Of a stretch of 58,411 nucleotides of DNA, positions 400-43,670 are shown one piece after another. Position numbers and translations under genes: made by a program. Under the pieces are notes generated by a model. That model was not told the origin of the DNA. It saw nothing but the letters and a program-made list of their open reading frames with translations, and searched no databases. The DNA lies in IMG/VR virus record IMGVR_UViG_3300034072_001300, positions 1 to 58,411 of that record; one strand, written 5' to 3'. This DNA comes from a virus. The first letter of the stretch is position 1. Each line of letters begins with the position of its first letter.

Positions 400-2886
400 T
401 TAATAGAACCCATCTGGTTCCATATTATATCCATTCCAAGTACTTTTTGGCATATATTCTTCATCTATATTTGTACCATCATCAAAACTCCCGATATTCA
501 GATATTCAGTAAATGAACTTTTATCTGTTTCGGTTCCTTCTACTTCTTCAGAATAAAGATTTTTAATTAAATCTTTCATATCATCAAAGTTTTTAGCATT
601 ACAAAATGGTGCGAATATTAATGCCAAACTCATAATCATATCATCGTGACAATTTTCATCTGCTTGATATTTATTATTAAGTAAAATAAATGTAAAAAAT
701 TCTTTTATGGTTTCTTTATCATTTATTTCTAAATTATTGTTTTCTATAAAGAGCTTCATTGTTTGTAAAATTAATTTTCTACTTTTACTTGATGTTCTAA
801 ATCCGGGATATTTTTTTCTACCTTTTGTTAAGTTAGTACTGTTTGAATTATCATTCTTATCATAATGTAAATTATCATAATCATAATCATTTTTCATTTG
901 ATCAGCTATACTTTGCCCTGCTCCCTCGTTGTTCTCTATGATTAAATATGGTAAATTATAATATTCGCACCAATCATTTATATATTCAGGCATTAGTAAA
1001 TAATCTATCTGTAATTGTGCTGAAGCAACTTGTTTAAATTTAAACCCTGTTATATCAATTATTTGCGCCGCAAATGCATCTTGACCATCTTTGGCTGGAT
1101 CAACTGCACAAATATATTGGTGTCCTTTTTCAGGGTATGCATAAATTTTTAATTTACCATCTCTAATTTCTAATGGTTCTTTTGAAGTAAATTCTTTTAA
1201 TTTCTCTGAACTAATTAGTGTATGTGAAGAACCAATTGCTTCATTTGCATAATTCTGATTAAAATATAATATACCATTTTTAGCAATAGTCTGTTCTTTA
1301 AATTCTTCGGGTGTCATTAAAGCGCCTTTTGAATTAAATCTCGGCACTCTTTGCCAATCTAAATCATAAAGAACAAAACCATTTGTACCTATAGTTAATA
1401 TTATTTTATAATTTTCATCATCTATAATTTCAATTTCTTTAAACAATCTTTCTTTTAATGATTCATTTATTGTTTTTTGATCTATTTTTGATATATCAAC
1501 ATAAATAATTTTTTCATAATCTGAATTATAATCTTTTAATAAACAATATTTTTTATTCTTTAGTTCAACTAATTTATCTCCTGACGCTTCAATAATTTTA
1601 TTATTTGAAGCTGATTTAGTAATTTCATACCAATGATTCATACCCTTCATAGTACTAATAATAATATTCTTTTTCCATGCCAATCCAGATTGTGAAGGCA
1701 TAATAGAATCAATAAACTCCAGCCAACGGTTAGATCTTATAAACGCTGCTTCATCAACGACTAAACAATTATGATGAGTAATATCATTAGAAATATATGA
1801 ATTACAATCTTGTACTTCAACTGGGTCGTAATAATATTTTTCACCATCATCTAAAATAATATTTGTGATTATTTTGCCTTTAATTTTATGATTAATCTTT
1901 AGGTTTTCTGCTTTTCTAAAAATTTTACCGGAGCTAGACTTACCAACTAATATCTGATGATTTTTTGTGCATTTTACTTCTGTAAAATCATTTAACTTTA
2001 AAATTATTCCAGTATTTATTGTTCTTCTTACACCTAAAAAATTCTTATAACCATCTTGTGTTTTTATTAAATATCTATTATTAAATTCATTATCTAACTT
2101 AGAATATATTTCTTCCAGAGATATTAATTTATAAGATTTATCAATTTTATCGTAAACTTCTACCGGTGAATCTCCGGTTAAACATGAAATTGTAAATCCT
2201 CTAAATGCGTCAGAACTTGGAACATCTGTTAGAATTCTCATTTTAGATTCATTTTCTATAGAACCTTTATTCCAAACAGTAGTACCTTGTTGCATCCAAA
2301 TTGGGATTTCTAATAACATATTTTTAGTTGTATTAAGAAATTCTCTTGCTTGTGCTCCTTTATTTCCTACTATTCCAATATTTAATTCTTTATTAAAACT
2401 ATACATCCAAGATAGGTAGATACCGGTCGAAACCGACTTTCCTGATTGTCGACCCATCTTACCTGCTATGTTCTCATGTTCATCAGGTAAAATTAATTCA
2501 ATAAATTCATTTTGATATTCCCTTAAATCAGGAAAGTTTACACCCTTTGGAGTTTTTATTTTTATATAATTATCTTTAAAATAATGAATATCATCTGAAC
2601 ATTTTTGAATCTCATGAATATGTATTGGAAATAAATTTATTTTTGTGTATGCTTTTTTTAATCCTCTATTACCATCAAAAGAAATCCTATTTCCAAATGC
2701 ATCTAAGTAATAGTTATCTTCATCCTTAGAAATATCCAAAATTTCTAGAGCCAAATGTTTTCCAGGATTACCAAAACTTCTTATTTCCTCAAGAAGTTCG
2801 GGTGTTATTTGATCTTTATTATTTTTAAGAAATTCAATAATCTCAGGTTTAAAAATTTCTTTTAATTTCTTTTCTTTATCTGACAT
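400..2886 (-). CDS. terL: terminase large subunit (T4 gp17-like) containing a mini-intein
   Basis: The motor that pumps DNA into the prohead and cuts the concatemer. The N-terminal ATPase has a Walker A motif GRQSGKS (145-151) and Walker B LVVDEAA (375-381); the coupling motif IIISTMKG follows (408-415). The C-terminal RNase H-like nuclease shows D596 (ICAVDPAKDG), E651 (YLIIENNEG) and D748/D749 (CHDDM). Residues 235-373 are an intein splitting the segment between AFRGFTIS and CLVVDEAA. Removing it leaves about 689 residues. A second stretch, about 428-500, after the coupling motif also looks inserted compared with T4 gp17, which passes quickly there to the nuclease linker. The start ATG lies inside the upstream gene (25-base overlap), so translation is probably coupled. 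A late promoter motif lies before that upstream gene. Confidence 0.93.
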   Translation of the reverse strand: MSDKEKKLKEIFKPEIIEFLKNNKDQITPELLEEIRSFGNPGKHLALEILDISKDEDNYYLDAFGNRISFDGNRGLKKAYTKINLFPIHIHEIQKCSDDIHYFKDNYIKIKTPKGVNFPDLREYQNEFIELILPDEHENIAGKMGRQSGKSVSTGIYLSWMYSFNKELNIGIVGNKGAQAREFLNTTKNMLLEIPIWMQQGTTVWNKGSIENESKMRILTDVPSSDAFRGFTISCLTGDSPVEVYDKIDKSYKLISLEEIYSKLDNEFNNRYLIKTQDGYKNFLGVRRTINTGIILKLNDFTEVKCTKNHQILVGKSSSGKIFRKAENLKINHKIKGKIITNIILDDGEKYYYDPVEVQDCNSYISNDITHHNCLVVDEAAFIRSNRWLEFIDSIMPSQSGLAWKKNIIISTMKGMNHWYEITKSASNNKIIEASGDKLVELKNKKYCLLKDYNSDYEKIIYVDISKIDQKTINESLKERLFKEIEIIDDENYKIILTIGTNGFVLYDLDWQRVPRFNSKGALMTPEEFKEQTIAKNGILYFNQNYANEAIGSSHTLISSEKLKEFTSKEPLEIRDGKLKIYAYPEKGHQYICAVDPAKDGQDAFAAQIIDITGFKFKQVASAQLQIDYLLMPEYINDWCEYYNLPYLIIENNEGAGQSIADQMKNDYDYDNLHYDKNDNSNSTNLTKGRKKYPGFRTSSKSRKLILQTMKLFIENNNLEINDKETIKEFFTFILLNNKYQADENCHDDMIMSLALIFAPFCNAKNFDDMKDLIKNLYSEEVEGTETDKSSFTEYLNIGSFDDGTNIDEEYMPKSTWNGYNMEPDGFY
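1768..2184 (-). other. mini-intein within terminase (139 aa)
   Basis: This in-frame insertion has the parts of a self-splicing intein. Block A begins with Cys235 (CLTGDSPVEV). Block B is CTKNHQILV with T307 and H310. Block F is around DPVEVQDCNSYISND. Block G ends HHN (371-373) and is followed by Cys374 as the +1 nucleophile. The distance from block B to block F is too short for a LAGLIDADG or HNH homing domain, so this is a splicing-only mini-intein. It sits directly before the Walker B strand, so an unspliced motor should be inactive. All expected catalytic residues are present, so splicing is likely. Confidence 0.93.
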
Positions 2887-3602
2887 AGTTTACCTTTAAA
2901 TAAATTTTTAAAGACATTTATTATTTTTTGTGTTAATGATATAGATTTTTGTGTGTTTTTATATAAGTACTCAGGTTTTTTAAATATTGGTTCACCAAGT
3001 TTTACAATTTTATATTCTGAATTTATGCACATTGATGGAACTACTGAATCTAAAAATTTAGTATAATCTGTATTTGCTTTATTTTCTAAAATATACAATT
3101 GTGTTAATCCGAATCCTCTAAATGCTTTTTCATCTATATTATCAAATATTAATTTATTTGATCCTAATTCTATAGATGATTTTAGAAATTTTCCTTTACT
3201 TTTAAAGAATTTTGGTAATTCATTATATATTTTTTTAATATTAGCTATTTCTTCAGAACACAAATTTGCATCACCAGCAACACCAATAATTTCATTTATT
3301 TCAAAAATTAGAGTATGTAAAATACATACTCTTGTAGCAACTGACTTGTATTCATTCATTTCTAAGTTAATTTCAGAAATTTTATTATTTTGTACAAAAA
3401 TAATTATTTCGTCTTGTGACTCAATTTTGTCTAAATTAATCAAATAATTATCTTTAAAGTAAATAATATCATTTTTGCAAATTTCTAATTCTTCTTTTAA
3501 TAATTCTGCATTTACTTTTTTACTAAGTAATTTATTTGCTTCAAGTTTTCCATCAATTCCTTTATTTCTTAGATTAAGTAATTCAGTTTCTGTTAATTTC
3601 AT
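2862..3602 (-). CDS. degenerate paralogue of the terminase ATPase domain
   Basis: A 246-residue protein that lines up with the ATPase half of the neighbouring terminase. CKNDIIYFKDNYL (42-54) matches CSDDIHYFKDNYI. NEYKSVATRVCILHTLIFE (83-101) matches the Walker A region RQSGKSVSTGIYLSWMYSF. IIGVAGDANLCSEEIANI matches IGIVGNKGAQAREFLNTT. KAFRGFG (159-165) matches DAFRGFT. ILENKANTDYTKFLDSVVPSM (171-191) matches LVVDEAAFIRSNRWLEFIDSIMPSQ. Both Walker motifs are lost (the P-loop GRQSGKS becomes MNEYKS; DEAA becomes ENKA), the nuclease domain is absent, and there is no intein. It is an intact frame, overlaps the terminase start, and occupies the place where T4 has the small terminase gp16. It could be a terminase regulator or subunit rather than a relic. 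Confidence 0.75.
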   Translation of the reverse strand: MKLTETELLNLRNKGIDGKLEANKLLSKKVNAELLKEELEICKNDIIYFKDNYLINLDKIESQDEIIIFVQNNKISEINLEMNEYKSVATRVCILHTLIFEINEIIGVAGDANLCSEEIANIKKIYNELPKFFKSKGKFLKSSIELGSNKLIFDNIDEKAFRGFGLTQLYILENKANTDYTKFLDSVVPSMCINSEYKIVKLGEPIFKKPEYLYKNTQKSISLTQKIINVFKNLFKGKLCQIKKRN

Positions 3603-3646: not shown

Positions 3647-3654
3647 TATTTATA
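3647..3654 (-). promoter_or_regulatory. T4-type late promoter motif
   Basis: TATAAATA on the minus strand about 45 bases before the start of the terminase-paralogue gene. It matches the T4 late -10 sequence and suits a packaging operon. Confidence 0.55.
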
Positions 3655-5104: not shown

Positions 5105-5794
5105 ATGCAAGAACCACAAGAAAATATAAAAACTGAATTTATAAATTATGTAAAAAAGAAAATATATAATATAGAAGATATTGAATATGCTAATAAAGGA
5201 TTATCTGAAATGGCTATAGCAGCAAAAGGTGATTGGCCTAAAATAAAAGAAATGGTTACATCAATTACACCATTTATAATTGAGAAAAAATGGGATTATA
5301 TAGATTCTTTATATTTAAAGAATACAATATATAGAATATATAAGCAAAAAAACGTTTATGTATTAGGTTATTTTATAGAAAGAGCCGAAAGCACTGAGTT
5401 TATAGTGGAATTAGAAATAAAATTATCTCTTGAAACAGAAATAATGAATGAATTTAATTTTAAAAAGCAACTTATGAATGTTGATGGTGTTAGAGTAAGT
5501 GAAACTTCACAAGGGAGGGGATTGGCAACTCAAATGTATAAGTTTTTAGTTAAAAATGAAAATTTTATAATTCTTGGTGATGAGATACAATTCTTTGGTG
5601 CTAGAAAACTTTGGAGTAGATTATCTAAAGAAATTGATGTTAGAGTAGATATAATAGATATTGATTCTATTAAAGTTCTTGAGAAAGATGTTATTTTAAA
5701 GCACGGGACAGATGATTGGGATTTTGACAAAAGAGTTTGGTCTTATGATTTAGATAAAAGATATATTAGATTAGTTCTAAAAGAAATTAAATAA
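5105..5794 (+). CDS. GNAT-like acetyltransferase paralogue 1 (229 aa)
   Basis: The C-terminal half carries the signature shared by five proteins in this window. It has an acetyl-CoA loop-like SQGRGLATQMYKFL, then EIQFFGARKLWSRLS, then KHGTDDWDFDKRVWSYD and a closing IRLVLK. In GNAT enzymes the RGxG/A loop binds the pyrophosphate of acetyl-CoA. The N-terminal 100 residues are specific to this copy; KTEFINYVKKK (9-19) only loosely resembles the capsid-tag motif seen in others. The gene is alone under its promoter and ends at a terminator facing the endolysin. The substrate is unknown. Confidence 0.65.
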   Translation: MQEPQENIKTEFINYVKKKIYNIEDIEYANKGLSEMAIAAKGDWPKIKEMVTSITPFIIEKKWDYIDSLYLKNTIYRIYKQKNVYVLGYFIERAESTEFIVELEIKLSLETEIMNEFNFKKQLMNVDGVRVSETSQGRGLATQMYKFLVKNENFIILGDEIQFFGARKLWSRLSKEIDVRVDIIDIDSIKVLEKDVILKHGTDDWDFDKRVWSYDLDKRYIRLVLKEIK

Positions 5795-8722: not shown

Positions 8723-9193
8723 ATGGGTACTATAAAAAGTGCATTTTATATTATTATAGGTCTTGCTATTATTAGCTCTATATGGTGGGTTTATGATTTA
8801 TACAAAGAAAATCAGATTCTAACATTAAATAATCAAAAATTGGAATTTAGTATTACTGAACAAGATAAAGTAATTAAACAAAAAGAAAAAGATTTGGTTG
8901 ATAAAGAAAGAATTCAAAATGAACATAAAATTGTTGTACAAAATTTAGAAAATGAGAAATTTGAATTAGAACAAAAATTTACCAAAGAAAAAACAGTGAC
9001 TGTTATTATAGATAATAAAGAAACAAAAATAAAAAAACAAAGAGATATTGGTAAATTGGCTGTCGTAAAACCAAAAATGGTTCAAACAGTCATCAATAAA
9101 GGAACTATTAAAGAATTTAGATGCTTAGAAGCTATTACAAATCCAGAATTTAAAAATTTTGATAATTTACAAGGAGTTCAAGAATGCAAATAA
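8723..9193 (+). CDS. inner-membrane spanin (Rz-like)
   Basis: The protein has one N-terminal membrane segment (about residues 5-25, AFYIIIGLAIISSIWWVY). A long periplasmic coiled coil (30-115) and a cysteine-containing tail follow. This layout plus the overlapping lipoprotein gene is the classic Rz/Rz1 arrangement that fuses inner and outer membranes at the last step of lysis. At 156 residues it has the usual length. AAAAGGAG precedes the ATG and a late promoter lies upstream. Confidence 0.8.
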   Translation: MGTIKSAFYIIIGLAIISSIWWVYDLYKENQILTLNNQKLEFSITEQDKVIKQKEKDLVDKERIQNEHKIVVQNLENEKFELEQKFTKEKTVTVIIDNKETKIKKQRDIGKLAVVKPKMVQTVINKGTIKEFRCLEAITNPEFKNFDNLQGVQECK

Positions 9194-9537
9194 AGCAAAT
9201 AATTAAAAATATTATTTTAGCAAGTTCATTATTATTTATTACAGGTTGTTCAACAAAAACAATAGATATTAAAACAACTGAATCGCAAAGAACAAAATTA
9301 AATTTAAGTGAACCAAATGCAGTAAATTTAAAAGATGTTAATTTTTTAATAATAACACAACAAAACACAAATGAAGTTTTTAAACAGTTAGAAACATCAA
9401 ATAAAGATAAAGTTCTAATTGGGTTAACAGATGAAGATTATATTAAAATGTCTGAAAATCTCCTTGAATTAAAGAGATATATTTTAGAACAAAGAAAAAT
9501 TATAAATTCTTATAAAGAATATTATGAATCTAATTAA
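9184..9537 (+). CDS. outer-membrane spanin lipoprotein (Rz1-like)
   Basis: The signal sequence ends in a lipobox LFITGC (Cys22), so the mature protein is a lipoprotein with S-T at +2/+3, consistent with outer-membrane sorting. A middle segment NLSEPNAVNLKDVNFLIIT resembles o-spanins of other T4-like phages. The start overlaps the end of the i-spanin gene by 10 bases in another frame. It would join the i-spanin across the periplasm. Confidence 0.8.
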   Translation: MQIKQIIKNIILASSLLFITGCSTKTIDIKTTESQRTKLNLSEPNAVNLKDVNFLIITQQNTNEVFKQLETSNKDKVLIGLTDEDYIKMSENLLELKRYILEQRKIINSYKEYYESN

Positions 9538-9584: not shown

Positions 9585-10235
9585 ATGCTAAAGTTCAGAG
9601 AATGGTTAAAAGAAAAGGAATTAAATGAAATGTCACCAGTAAAAATGATGGGAAATGCACCATTTGAAAGTTTAGGAAATTTATCGAAAAGTAAAAACTC
9701 ATTAGAAGAAGACTATATTAAAATTGCGGAATTAAATGAATATGATGTTGTTTATAAGCACAAGAAATTAGAATTAATAATTGTTGTTAGAGAATTTTTT
9801 GAAGAATTACGACAAGAGATTAGATATGCTATTATAGCAGAAATGAGTTTTAAAATAGATAAAATAAAATCAACAAATAAATTAATAAACAATAAAGAAG
9901 CAGTAATTTTAAAGACTATAAATGTTAGAGAAGCAAATAGAAGACAAAATATAGCATCTAAACTATATTTACTACTTTCTGAGTATTATATTGTTATTTC
10001 AGACAGTGTTCAATATGAAGGAGCAGTAAAACTTTGGAAATCATTTATAAGAATTCCAAATATAGTTCTTTATATTTGGGATGAGCAAGAAGATAAAATT
10101 ATTTCAAAAATGACTTCTAAAACCCATGATAATGCAATTTGGAGTAATGGTGATTTAAAAGATTATTCTAAAATGAAAGTAAGATTAATTTTAATAAATG
10201 CAGATAGTAAAAATAATTCAAATAAAGATAATTAA
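9585..10235 (+). CDS. GNAT-like protein with capsid-targeting-like N-terminus (paralogue 2)
   Basis: The first residues, MLKFREWLKEKELNEMS, match the layout of the T4 capsid targeting sequence (MKTYQEFIAEA): aromatic, x, E, aromatic, hydrophobic, x, E. LNE followed by M would be a plausible site for a gp21-type prohead protease, which cuts after hydrophobic-x-E. The rest is GNAT-like: NRRQNIASKLYLLLS, then DSVQYEGAVKLWKSF, ending with KVRLILIN. If packaged, the enzyme would enter the cell with the DNA. It is 216 residues long and sits between the spanins and ClpP. The substrate is unknown. Confidence 0.65.
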   Translation: MLKFREWLKEKELNEMSPVKMMGNAPFESLGNLSKSKNSLEEDYIKIAELNEYDVVYKHKKLELIIVVREFFEELRQEIRYAIIAEMSFKIDKIKSTNKLINNKEAVILKTINVREANRRQNIASKLYLLLSEYYIVISDSVQYEGAVKLWKSFIRIPNIVLYIWDEQEDKIISKMTSKTHDNAIWSNGDLKDYSKMKVRLILINADSKNNSNKDN

Positions 10236-36486: not shown

Positions 36487-37071
36487 ATGATTAAATTTAC
36501 TGATTGGTTAAAAGAAAAAGAATTAACGGAAATGCCAAGATATATTGATCACGAATATTTAGATTTTAAACCTATGAAGGATTTAGGTATGACTGGTTTA
36601 GAAAAAACTTGGCAACAATTAGAAGTAAAATTCATTGGAAATAAAAAGAATGATTCACTGTGTTTTGTAAAAAAGAGTAAATCTATAGCAGTTATTGGTT
36701 TAACTGTTTGGGATGATAATTATAAGTGCTGGAATTTAGAAGTGGCTAGTTATGTTAAACTTGAAAAAACACCAATAACAGGAGATCACTATAAAGTTAT
36801 TGGTGTTTTTACAAAAGAAGATTATAGATTAGAAAAATATACATTAACATTATATTATACATTAATAAAGAACGGAATTAAGTTGTGTTCTGATAATGAA
36901 CAATATCAAGGTGCTAAATATTTATGGAAAGCATTATCTAGAATAACACCAATTGAAATTTATGATGAATTAAACAATACTTATAAAGATTACTCTTTTG
37001 TGAACACAAAAGATGAAGAAGTATGGAGTAAAAATTATTCAAAATATGATATTGTTTTAAGAAGTAAATAA
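36487..37071 (+). CDS. GNAT-like protein with capsid-targeting-like N-terminus (paralogue 3)
   Basis: MIKFTDWLKEKELTEMPRY mirrors the tag at 9585 (MLKFREWLKEKELNEMS) almost residue for residue, including the LxE-M junction that could be cut by a prohead protease. The body has EDYRLEKYTLTLYYTLI where others have the acetyl-CoA loop, then DNEQYQGAKYLWKALS and a closing KYDIVLRSK. The loop glycines are poorly kept, so enzymatic activity is doubtful. It is 194 residues long. A middle-type promoter lies upstream and a terminator follows. Confidence 0.65.
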   Translation: MIKFTDWLKEKELTEMPRYIDHEYLDFKPMKDLGMTGLEKTWQQLEVKFIGNKKNDSLCFVKKSKSIAVIGLTVWDDNYKCWNLEVASYVKLEKTPITGDHYKVIGVFTKEDYRLEKYTLTLYYTLIKNGIKLCSDNEQYQGAKYLWKALSRITPIEIYDELNNTYKDYSFVNTKDEEVWSKNYSKYDIVLRSK

Positions 37072-41205: not shown

Positions 41206-41230
41206 TATGTATTTAAAATTAAGGAAAAAT

Positions 41231-41794
41231 ATGCCAAAAGCAATAAAAGGGGATTATAATATATCTACTGATTTAAGAACTTTAAATCAAGATGAAATGA
41301 AAAACTATATTTTTATAGATAAAATAGATACATTTGAGTTATATAATAGAATTAATACAGAAATTAAATTGATTAATAATTGCGATTATATTCTTGGTTA
41401 CTACGCACTAAATAATCAATTTAAGAAAGTTGCTAAAATTTATTTTAATAAAATAGATAATTATTATGAAGTTGATACAATTTATGTTTCAAAAGATTTT
41501 AGAGGTTCTGGAATAGCATCTAAATTATATACTTATTTTGCTAAAAATCTAAATTATAGTATCTTAAGTTCTGATATGCAAAGATTTGGAGCAAGAAGAC
41601 TTTGGAGTAAATTATCTAAAAATTCAAATTTAACTATTGATGTTATTGATTTTAATAATAAAGAAATACTTGAGAATAATATAATTATTAATCACGGAAC
41701 AAAAGATGAAGAATTTGATAATGGATTTTGGTCTTATGATAATGATAAGAAAAATATTAGATTTATCTTAAAAAGCTTAAATGCTAAAATTTAA
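41231..41794 (+). CDS. GNAT-like acetyltransferase paralogue 4 (187 aa)
   Basis: The start ATG at 41231 (MPKAIKGDYNIS) has AAGGA five bases before it. An ATG at 41207 is open but lies on the promoter's transcription start, so it is rejected. The conserved core is VDTIYVSKDFRGSGIASKLYTY, a good GNAT RGxG/A loop, then SSDMQRFGARRLWSKLS, NHGTKDEEFDNGFWSYD and IRFILK. Its beginning matches paralogue 5 at 43101 (MSKAIKGVYEI), so these two are the closest pair. No capsid tag is seen. Confidence 0.75.
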   Translation: MPKAIKGDYNISTDLRTLNQDEMKNYIFIDKIDTFELYNRINTEIKLINNCDYILGYYALNNQFKKVAKIYFNKIDNYYEVDTIYVSKDFRGSGIASKLYTYFAKNLNYSILSSDMQRFGARRLWSKLSKNSNLTIDVIDFNNKEILENNIIINHGTKDEEFDNGFWSYDNDKKNIRFILKSLNAKI

Positions 41795-43100: not shown

Positions 43101-43670
43101 ATGTCGAAAGCAATTAAAGGAGTATATGAAATTCCAGAAATCTATATGAATGCAATAGAAATCGATAATTTTAAAGAAAAATATGTGTTTCAAGATTATT
43201 TAATTAATTATTTACTATATAAACATAAAACAGATAATAATTGGTGTTTAGGTTATCTTAATGATTCTGAAACATTATTTATTCCTATAGGTCGAATATG
43301 GTTTGATACAGAATATGGTAACAAATTAAATAATTCTTATAGAAATATACACATTGTTGATGAAATAGCAGTAAATAAAGATTATAGATGTTTGGGTGTA
43401 GCAACTAAATTATATACTTATTTTGTTAAAAAACATAATTATACATTAATGAGTTCTTATTTGCAATATTTTGGTTCTAGAAAATTATGGTCTGCACTAT
43501 CAAGAGATAATAATTTAAGCGTTGATATTATAGATATTGAAAATAACAAATTAATTGATAAAAATGCTATTATATATCACGGTGATTTAGATGAAGAATT
43601 TGATAAAAGAGTTTGGTCATATAATTCAGATGCTATAAATATAAGATTAATTCTAAAAGCCAAACTTTAA
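43101..43670 (+). CDS. GNAT-like acetyltransferase paralogue 5 (189 aa)
   Basis: It begins MSKAIKGVYEIPEIYMNAIE. The core is VDEIAVNKDYRCLGVATKLYTY, SSYLQYFGSRKLWSALS, YHGDLDEEFDKRVWSYN and IRLILK. The acetyl-CoA loop here reads YRCLGVA rather than RGxGIA, with Cys for the first Gly, so binding may be weakened. It is the closest relative of the gene at 41231; a local duplication is likely. Confidence 0.75.
   Translation: MSKAIKGVYEIPEIYMNAIEIDNFKEKYVFQDYLINYLLYKHKTDNNWCLGYLNDSETLFIPIGRIWFDTEYGNKLNNSYRNIHIVDEIAVNKDYRCLGVATKLYTYFVKKHNYTLMSSYLQYFGSRKLWSALSRDNNLSVDIIDIENNKLIDKNAIIYHGDLDEEFDKRVWSYNSDAINIRLILKAKL

What the first reader, a model, noticed from the sequence alone, without database searches (positions are those of the whole stretch)
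2862..3602. ATPase-dead terminase copy in the gp16 position
The 246-residue protein aligns block by block with the terminase ATPase domain, yet both the P-loop and DEAA are replaced, the nuclease is absent and no intein is present. The frame is intact and overlaps the terminase start. It could be a pseudo-ATPase that replaces or assists the small terminase, or a motor ring subunit. I do not know of such an arrangement described.
Basis: partly seen in the sequence, partly recalled or inferred. Interest (0 to 1): 0.8.

Follow-up and report, generated by a model that had tools for sequence, protein, structure and literature searches.

The report
Dead copy of a phage packaging motor
Right in front of the gene for its DNA-packaging motor, this T4-like phage keeps a second, shortened copy of the motor's engine domain that has lost its ATP-burning parts yet is still protected by natural selection, which suggests it is a non-working partner or regulator of the motor.

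Summary
ORF 2862-3602(-), 246 aa, is a diverged paralogue of the T4 gp17-type large terminase (TerL) ATPase domain: a TerL-only profile finds it at E 1.5e-19, and its best structural match is T4 gp17 (Z 21.6, 206 residues). It corresponds only to gp17 residues ~69-313; lid and nuclease are missing. The active site is degenerate: Walker B DE is EN, the second P-loop Gly is lost, STxxG is LGEP. The P-loop Lys-Ser, Q-motif Gln and FRG motif remain, so "P-loop replaced" is only partly right.

A second phage (L016) has a 76% identical orthologue in the same place with the same dead Walker B. dN/dS is 0.24, like TerL (0.27), so it is not a decaying pseudogene. A TATAAATA late promoter stands 43-44 nt upstream in both; the gene probably leads the TerL transcript.

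Replacement of gp16 is not supported: the predicted fold is not a small terminase, and complete relatives lack both the copy and a recognisable T4-type gp16. Most likely it is a pseudo-ATPase that modulates the packaging motor; the interaction is inferred, not shown. Only two genomes carry it. I found no published description, in open-access papers only.

The parts
2862..3602 (-). ATPase-dead TerL paralogue, 246 aa (first subdomain of the gp17 ATPase domain only)
   Evidence: orthologue L016:537-1250
3342..3362 (-). degenerate Walker A, residues 81-87 EMNEYKS (Lys-Ser kept; GRKEHKS in L016)
3078..3095 (-). degenerate Walker B, residues 170-175 YILENK (DE changed to EN; identical in L016)
2865..2957 (-). 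basic, amphipathic C-terminal tail, residues 216-246 (net +8; +5 in L016), in place of the lid subdomain
   Evidence: pLDDT under 50 for 216-245
3647..3654 (-). T4-type late promoter element TATAAATA, 44 nt before the ATG; also 43 nt before the ATG in L016
3606..3613 (-). ribosome binding site AAAGGAAG of the dead copy
   Evidence: read from the sequence
2893..2897 (-). ribosome binding site AAAGG of TerL, inside the last codons of the dead copy
   Evidence: read from the sequence
400..2886 (-). TerL (gp17 homologue), 828 aa, with an intein inserted at Walker B

Best explanation
The 246-aa protein is a pseudo-ATPase derived from the TerL ATPase domain and is probably made late in infection, at the head of the TerL transcript. 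Shown by computation: TerL descent and fold, loss of the catalytic motifs in two phages, purifying selection, a late promoter element in front of it in both phages, and gene order with overlap or near contact to TerL. Inferred: it keeps the subunit-binding and possibly nucleotide-binding surface of TerL, cannot hydrolyse ATP, and binds TerL (or the TerL site on the portal) to modulate motor assembly, initiation or activity. Its basic amphipathic tail, in place of the lid, is a candidate docking or DNA-binding element.
For: Homology. Fold: AlphaFold model with pLDDT about 80-95 over most of residues 31-200; best match T4 gp17 ATPase, Z 21.6, 206 residues. Orthologue, 76% identical, directly before TerL in L016. 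dN/dS 0.24 (bootstrap 0.16-0.38), close to TerL's 0.27 between the same two phages; codon-position differences 41/21/69; the block holding the P-loop is the least conserved, as expected once catalysis is given up. TATAAATA at 43-44 nt before the start in both phages; in this window the element precedes 10 of 65 ORFs against 0.7 expected, so it is very probably a working late promoter. Feasibility: the T4 motor tolerates one to three ATPase-defective gp17 subunits, at lower speed and with more pausing (PMC8589836).
Against: No interaction or expression data. Only two genomes carry it and most relatives do without it. The TerL ATPase domains of the two phages are only about 44-60% identical while the dead copies are 76% identical, which argues against tight co-evolution with that domain. 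The copy lacks the lid and nuclease domain of a full motor subunit. The good structure model used TerL rows in the alignment; the model from the two orthologues alone was poor (pLDDT 38.8).
Confidence: 0.5

Rival explanations
1. It replaces the small terminase (gp16): it loads TerL on DNA and stimulates its ATPase.
For: It lies directly before TerL, as gp16 does in T4, and no T4-type gp16 (PF11053, phrog_445, phrog_735) was found in the window or in four complete relatives. Its tail is basic.
Against: Small terminases are 15-21 kDa proteins with a helical oligomerisation core (PMC9611059); this is a ~28 kDa protein with a predicted TerL ATPase fold. Complete relatives lack both this copy and a recognisable gp16, so the gap was not filled by this gene across the clade. 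A diverged small terminase cannot be excluded.
Confidence: 0.12
2. It acts outside the motor: a repurposed TerL domain that binds DNA or another late protein.
For: Basic amphipathic tail, loss of the lid and nuclease, and independence from the swapped TerL ATPase domain. A second dead TerL-like domain in L010 is joined to an Arc-like DNA-binding N-terminus.
Against: Its gene is linked to TerL in both phages.
Confidence: 0.18
3. It is a decoy for bacterial sensors that recognise TerL (Avs/AVAST family): it binds the sensor without triggering it.
For: Avs1-4 sense terminase or portal among other phage proteins (PMC12931631), and the model matches the TerL bound by Avs3 (8dgc, Z 18.7). A faster changing nucleotide-site block would fit.
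Against: No direct evidence; a TerL-like domain could as well trigger the sensor; it is probably expressed together with TerL rather than before it.
Confidence: 0.08
4. It is a passive remnant of a tandem duplication, at most a leader cistron that sets TerL translation.
For: Overlap with TerL (25 nt), a promoter-proximal position, and presence in only two genomes.
Against: dN/dS 0.24 with a 95% range below 0.38. The lineage has diverged by about 2.5 changes per site from TerLs with the frame still open. Selection acts on the protein, not only on the RNA.
Confidence: 0.07

Closest known systems
T4 gp17 large terminase, ATPase domain (PDB 2o0j, 2o0h, 3cpe)
   Same: Fold and order of elements over gp17 residues 69-313; Q-motif Gln, P-loop Lys-Ser and the conserved FRG motif of this TerL group
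   Different: No Walker B DE, no second P-loop Gly, no STxxG motif, no lid subdomain, no nuclease; 18% identity
T4 gp16 small terminase (PF11053, phrog_445, phrog_735)
   Same: Position before the TerL gene only
   Different: Predicted fold, size and profile matches
Dead TerL-like protein of L010 (IMG/VR 3300031565_005683, 312 aa)
   Same: TerL ATPase homology (E 5.5e-25), no nuclease, catalytic Glu also changed to Asn, no intein
   Different: P-loop Lys changed to Ile; Arc-like DNA-binding N-terminus; no TerL beside it on its short contig
ATPase-defective gp17 subunits in T4 motors (Q163A; PMC8589836)
   Same: Subunit that cannot hydrolyse ATP; tolerated in the pentamer
   Different: Laboratory mutant of full length, not a natural separate gene

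Membership tests
TerL, T4 gp17 type | ATPase domain fold of the TerL kind | tested here: met
TerL, T4 gp17 type | Walker A GxxxxGK(S/T) | tested here: not met
   EMNEYKS / GRKEHKS: Lys-Ser kept, second Gly lost
TerL, T4 gp17 type | Walker B Asp plus catalytic Glu (DE) | tested here: not met
   EN in both orthologues
TerL, T4 gp17 type | C-terminal RNase H-like nuclease | tested here: not met
   absent; the protein ends after the first ATPase subdomain and a short tail
TerL, T4 gp17 type | packages DNA | not testable with these tools
   needs experiment
T4-type small terminase (gp16) | profile match to PF11053 or PHROG small-terminase families | tested here: not met
   no such match for the protein in Pfam or PHROGs
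T4-type small terminase (gp16) | small helical protein that forms a ring | tested here: inconclusive
   246 aa with a predicted TerL ATPase fold speaks against; the model was guided by TerL rows, and ring formation cannot be tested here
Intein- or intron-split TerL exon | fragment needed to complete the downstream TerL | tested here: not met
   the downstream TerL is complete by itself

The most novel reading that the evidence does not exclude
A natural viral packaging motor that contains, or is regulated by, a dedicated non-hydrolysing paralogue of its own engine subunit: a hetero-motor in a family treated as homomeric, with a comparable device perhaps evolved a second time in the L010 phage.
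Probability: 0.25. Interest if true: 0.85.

Novelty: new variant of a known kind. Interest (0 to 1): 0.58.

Why it matters
Terminase motors are treated as homo-oligomers of one TerL. A conserved, natural, ATPase-dead paralogue beside TerL would offer a ready-made system for asking whether ring coordination can be tuned by a dedicated inactive subunit, a question so far studied with laboratory mutants in T4. It also indicates that catalytically dead terminase domains can be kept by selection, so short 'terminase' hits in phage genomes need not be fragments or annotation errors.

Tried and rejected
Pseudogene: rejected by dN/dS, with the limit that this rests on one pair of sequences. Fragment of an intein- or intron-split TerL: rejected, the downstream TerL is complete (such splits do occur in relatives such as L022, L033 and L035). 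More orthologues: four scans of viral contigs found only L016, and one scan of genome contigs with TerL as query gave no upstream copy. Evolutionary origin: the tree puts the pair on a very long branch near the base of this TerL group; origin inside the nearest clade is not excluded (AU p 0.07). An earlier AU test was invalid because I left L022 out of the named clade, and I disregard it. Resemblance of the dead copy's N-terminus to the N-terminus of this clade's TerLs is weak (p about 0.003 to 0.02 by profile tests, not significant against most single TerLs), and I tested it after noticing it. Structure from the two orthologues alone failed (pLDDT 38.8). Literature searches for a described terminase paralogue found nothing relevant, within open-access papers only.

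Full report
What is there. ORF 2862-3602 on the minus strand encodes 246 aa and overlaps the start of the TerL gene (400-2886, minus) by 25 nt. The window is an IMG/VR virus record of 58,411 bases, presumably a genome fragment. Its nearest named relatives, by TerL and by DNA polymerase, are Vibrio phages pv27, phiTY18 and Va1 and, further off, Campylobacter Firehammervirus phages.

Homology. The protein matches the PHROG terL family phrog_5989 at E 2.2e-16 and its own TerL at E 7e-7. A profile built from TerL sequences without the two dead copies finds it at E 1.5e-19 among 3969 ORFs. A profile of a wider alignment, which includes the dead copies, hits T4 gp17 structures first. An AlphaFold model on a 25-row alignment has pLDDT of about 80-95 over most of residues 31-200 (mean 74.5). 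Its best solved match is the T4 gp17 ATPase domain, Z 21.6 over 206 residues, covering gp17 69-313. Caveat: the rows include TerLs, so the fold is partly guided by them; the model from the two orthologues alone was uninformative (pLDDT 38.8).

What is missing. The copy stops after the first ATPase subdomain: the lid and the nuclease are absent. Walker A is EMNEYKS (window) or GRKEHKS (L016) against GRQSGKS in the window's TerL; Walker B is ILENKA against VVDEAA; motif STxxG is LGEP or LGNP. Q-motif Gln63, Lys86-Ser87 and Arg162-Gly163 are kept. Loss of the catalytic Glu should abolish hydrolysis; nucleotide binding may survive (inference from established P-loop ATPase chemistry). Among 151 TerL-like ORFs in all loci fetched, most other motif failures are intein or intron interruptions or truncated ORFs; the clear exceptions are this pair and L010. 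A few full-length TerLs (for example L138, with GMS in Walker A) have a single unusual residue that I did not examine.

Conservation. L016 (IMG/VR 3300024239_000329) has a 237-aa orthologue, 76% identical, at the same place; there the copy ends 4 nt before the TerL GTG start. dN/dS is 0.24 (bootstrap 0.16-0.38), against 0.27 for TerL between the same two phages. Differences by codon position are 41, 21 and 69. The block with the P-loop is the least conserved, 57.5% identity with omega 0.5. This is what a selected protein that has given up catalysis should look like. It rests on one pair of sequences.

Expression. TATAAATA, the T4 late promoter element (established knowledge), precedes 10 of 65 ORFs of 100 aa or more within 60 nt, against 0.7 expected. 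The total count in this AT-rich window is not raised, so the signal is in the placement. One copy lies 44 nt before the dead copy and, in L016, one lies 43 nt before it, with a similar leader. No such element was seen in the 120 bases before the L016 TerL start; in the window the TerL start lies inside the dead copy, where one search also finds none. The dead copy is therefore probably the first cistron of a late TerL transcript.

Relation to gp16. In the near relatives L019 (pv27) and L023, TerL stands alone behind divergent genes. T4-type small terminase models (PF11053, phrog_445, phrog_735) find nothing convincing in the window or in pv27, Va1, WX1 and F379, but do find it in a more distant T4-like record, G004. 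Those complete relatives also lack the dead copy. So the clade manages with an unrecognised small terminase or none, and this gene is an addition in one sub-lineage rather than the clade's replacement. In Campylobacter phages a 68-aa gene (phrog_24021) sits before TerL; its match to a small-terminase family is not significant (E 0.15).

Mosaic TerL. Between window and L016, TerL residues 1-50 are 94% identical and the nuclease part 92-95%, but the ATPase part is only 44-60% identical; the tree places the two ATPase domains with different relatives. The inteins differ in site. The dead copies stayed 76% identical across this swap, so they are not tightly matched to one TerL ATPase domain. That weakens, without excluding, a model in which the copy is a regular ring subunit.

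Mechanism. Best reading: a pseudo-ATPase co-expressed with TerL that modulates the packaging motor. The T4 motor is known to work with one, two or even three ATPase-defective gp17 subunits, with motors that hold inactive subunits being slower and pausing more (PMC8589836), so incorporation of a dead subunit would not be lethal in principle. All steps after expression are inferred.

Second case. L010 (IMG/VR 3300031565_005683) holds a 312-aa TerL ATPase-like protein whose P-loop Lys is Ile and whose catalytic Glu is Asn, with an Arc-like N-terminus. In the tree it does not join the window pair as a supported clade, and both are long branches, so independent origin is likely but not proven.

Noticed in passing
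window 400-2886 and L016:1255-3537: The two TerLs carry inteins at different sites (Walker B in the window; ATPase/nuclease boundary in L016), and the ATPase domain appears to have been swapped by recombination while both ends stayed 92-95% identical.
   Followed up: partly
L010:55-993: Another short, apparently ATPase-dead TerL-like protein, joined to an Arc-like DNA-binding N-terminus.
   Followed up: partly
window 5105-5794, 9585-10235, 36487-37071, 41207-41794, 43101-43670: What looks like a repeated family of related proteins of about 190-230 aa, possibly acetyltransferase-like; the first two match the same PHROG of unknown function (phrog_15502). The other three were grouped by eye only.
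   Followed up: no
window 8723-9537: A pair of overlapping small genes, membrane protein then lipoprotein-like, that resembles an inner/outer spanin pair, behind a late promoter element.
   Followed up: no
window, 10 sites upstream of ORFs: TATAAATA late promoter elements stand 17-44 nt before 10 of 65 ORFs against 0.7 expected.
   Followed up: yes
L033:1422-1727: A 101-aa, probably helical protein directly before TerL; a candidate diverged small terminase. The near-identical L111 TerL comes from a metagenome bin labelled Helicobacter cetorum.
   Followed up: no
L138:4902-6716: A full-length TerL with SRQVGMS in place of the P-loop GKS/T (Lys to Met) but an intact DE; could be an alignment shift.
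   Followed up: no
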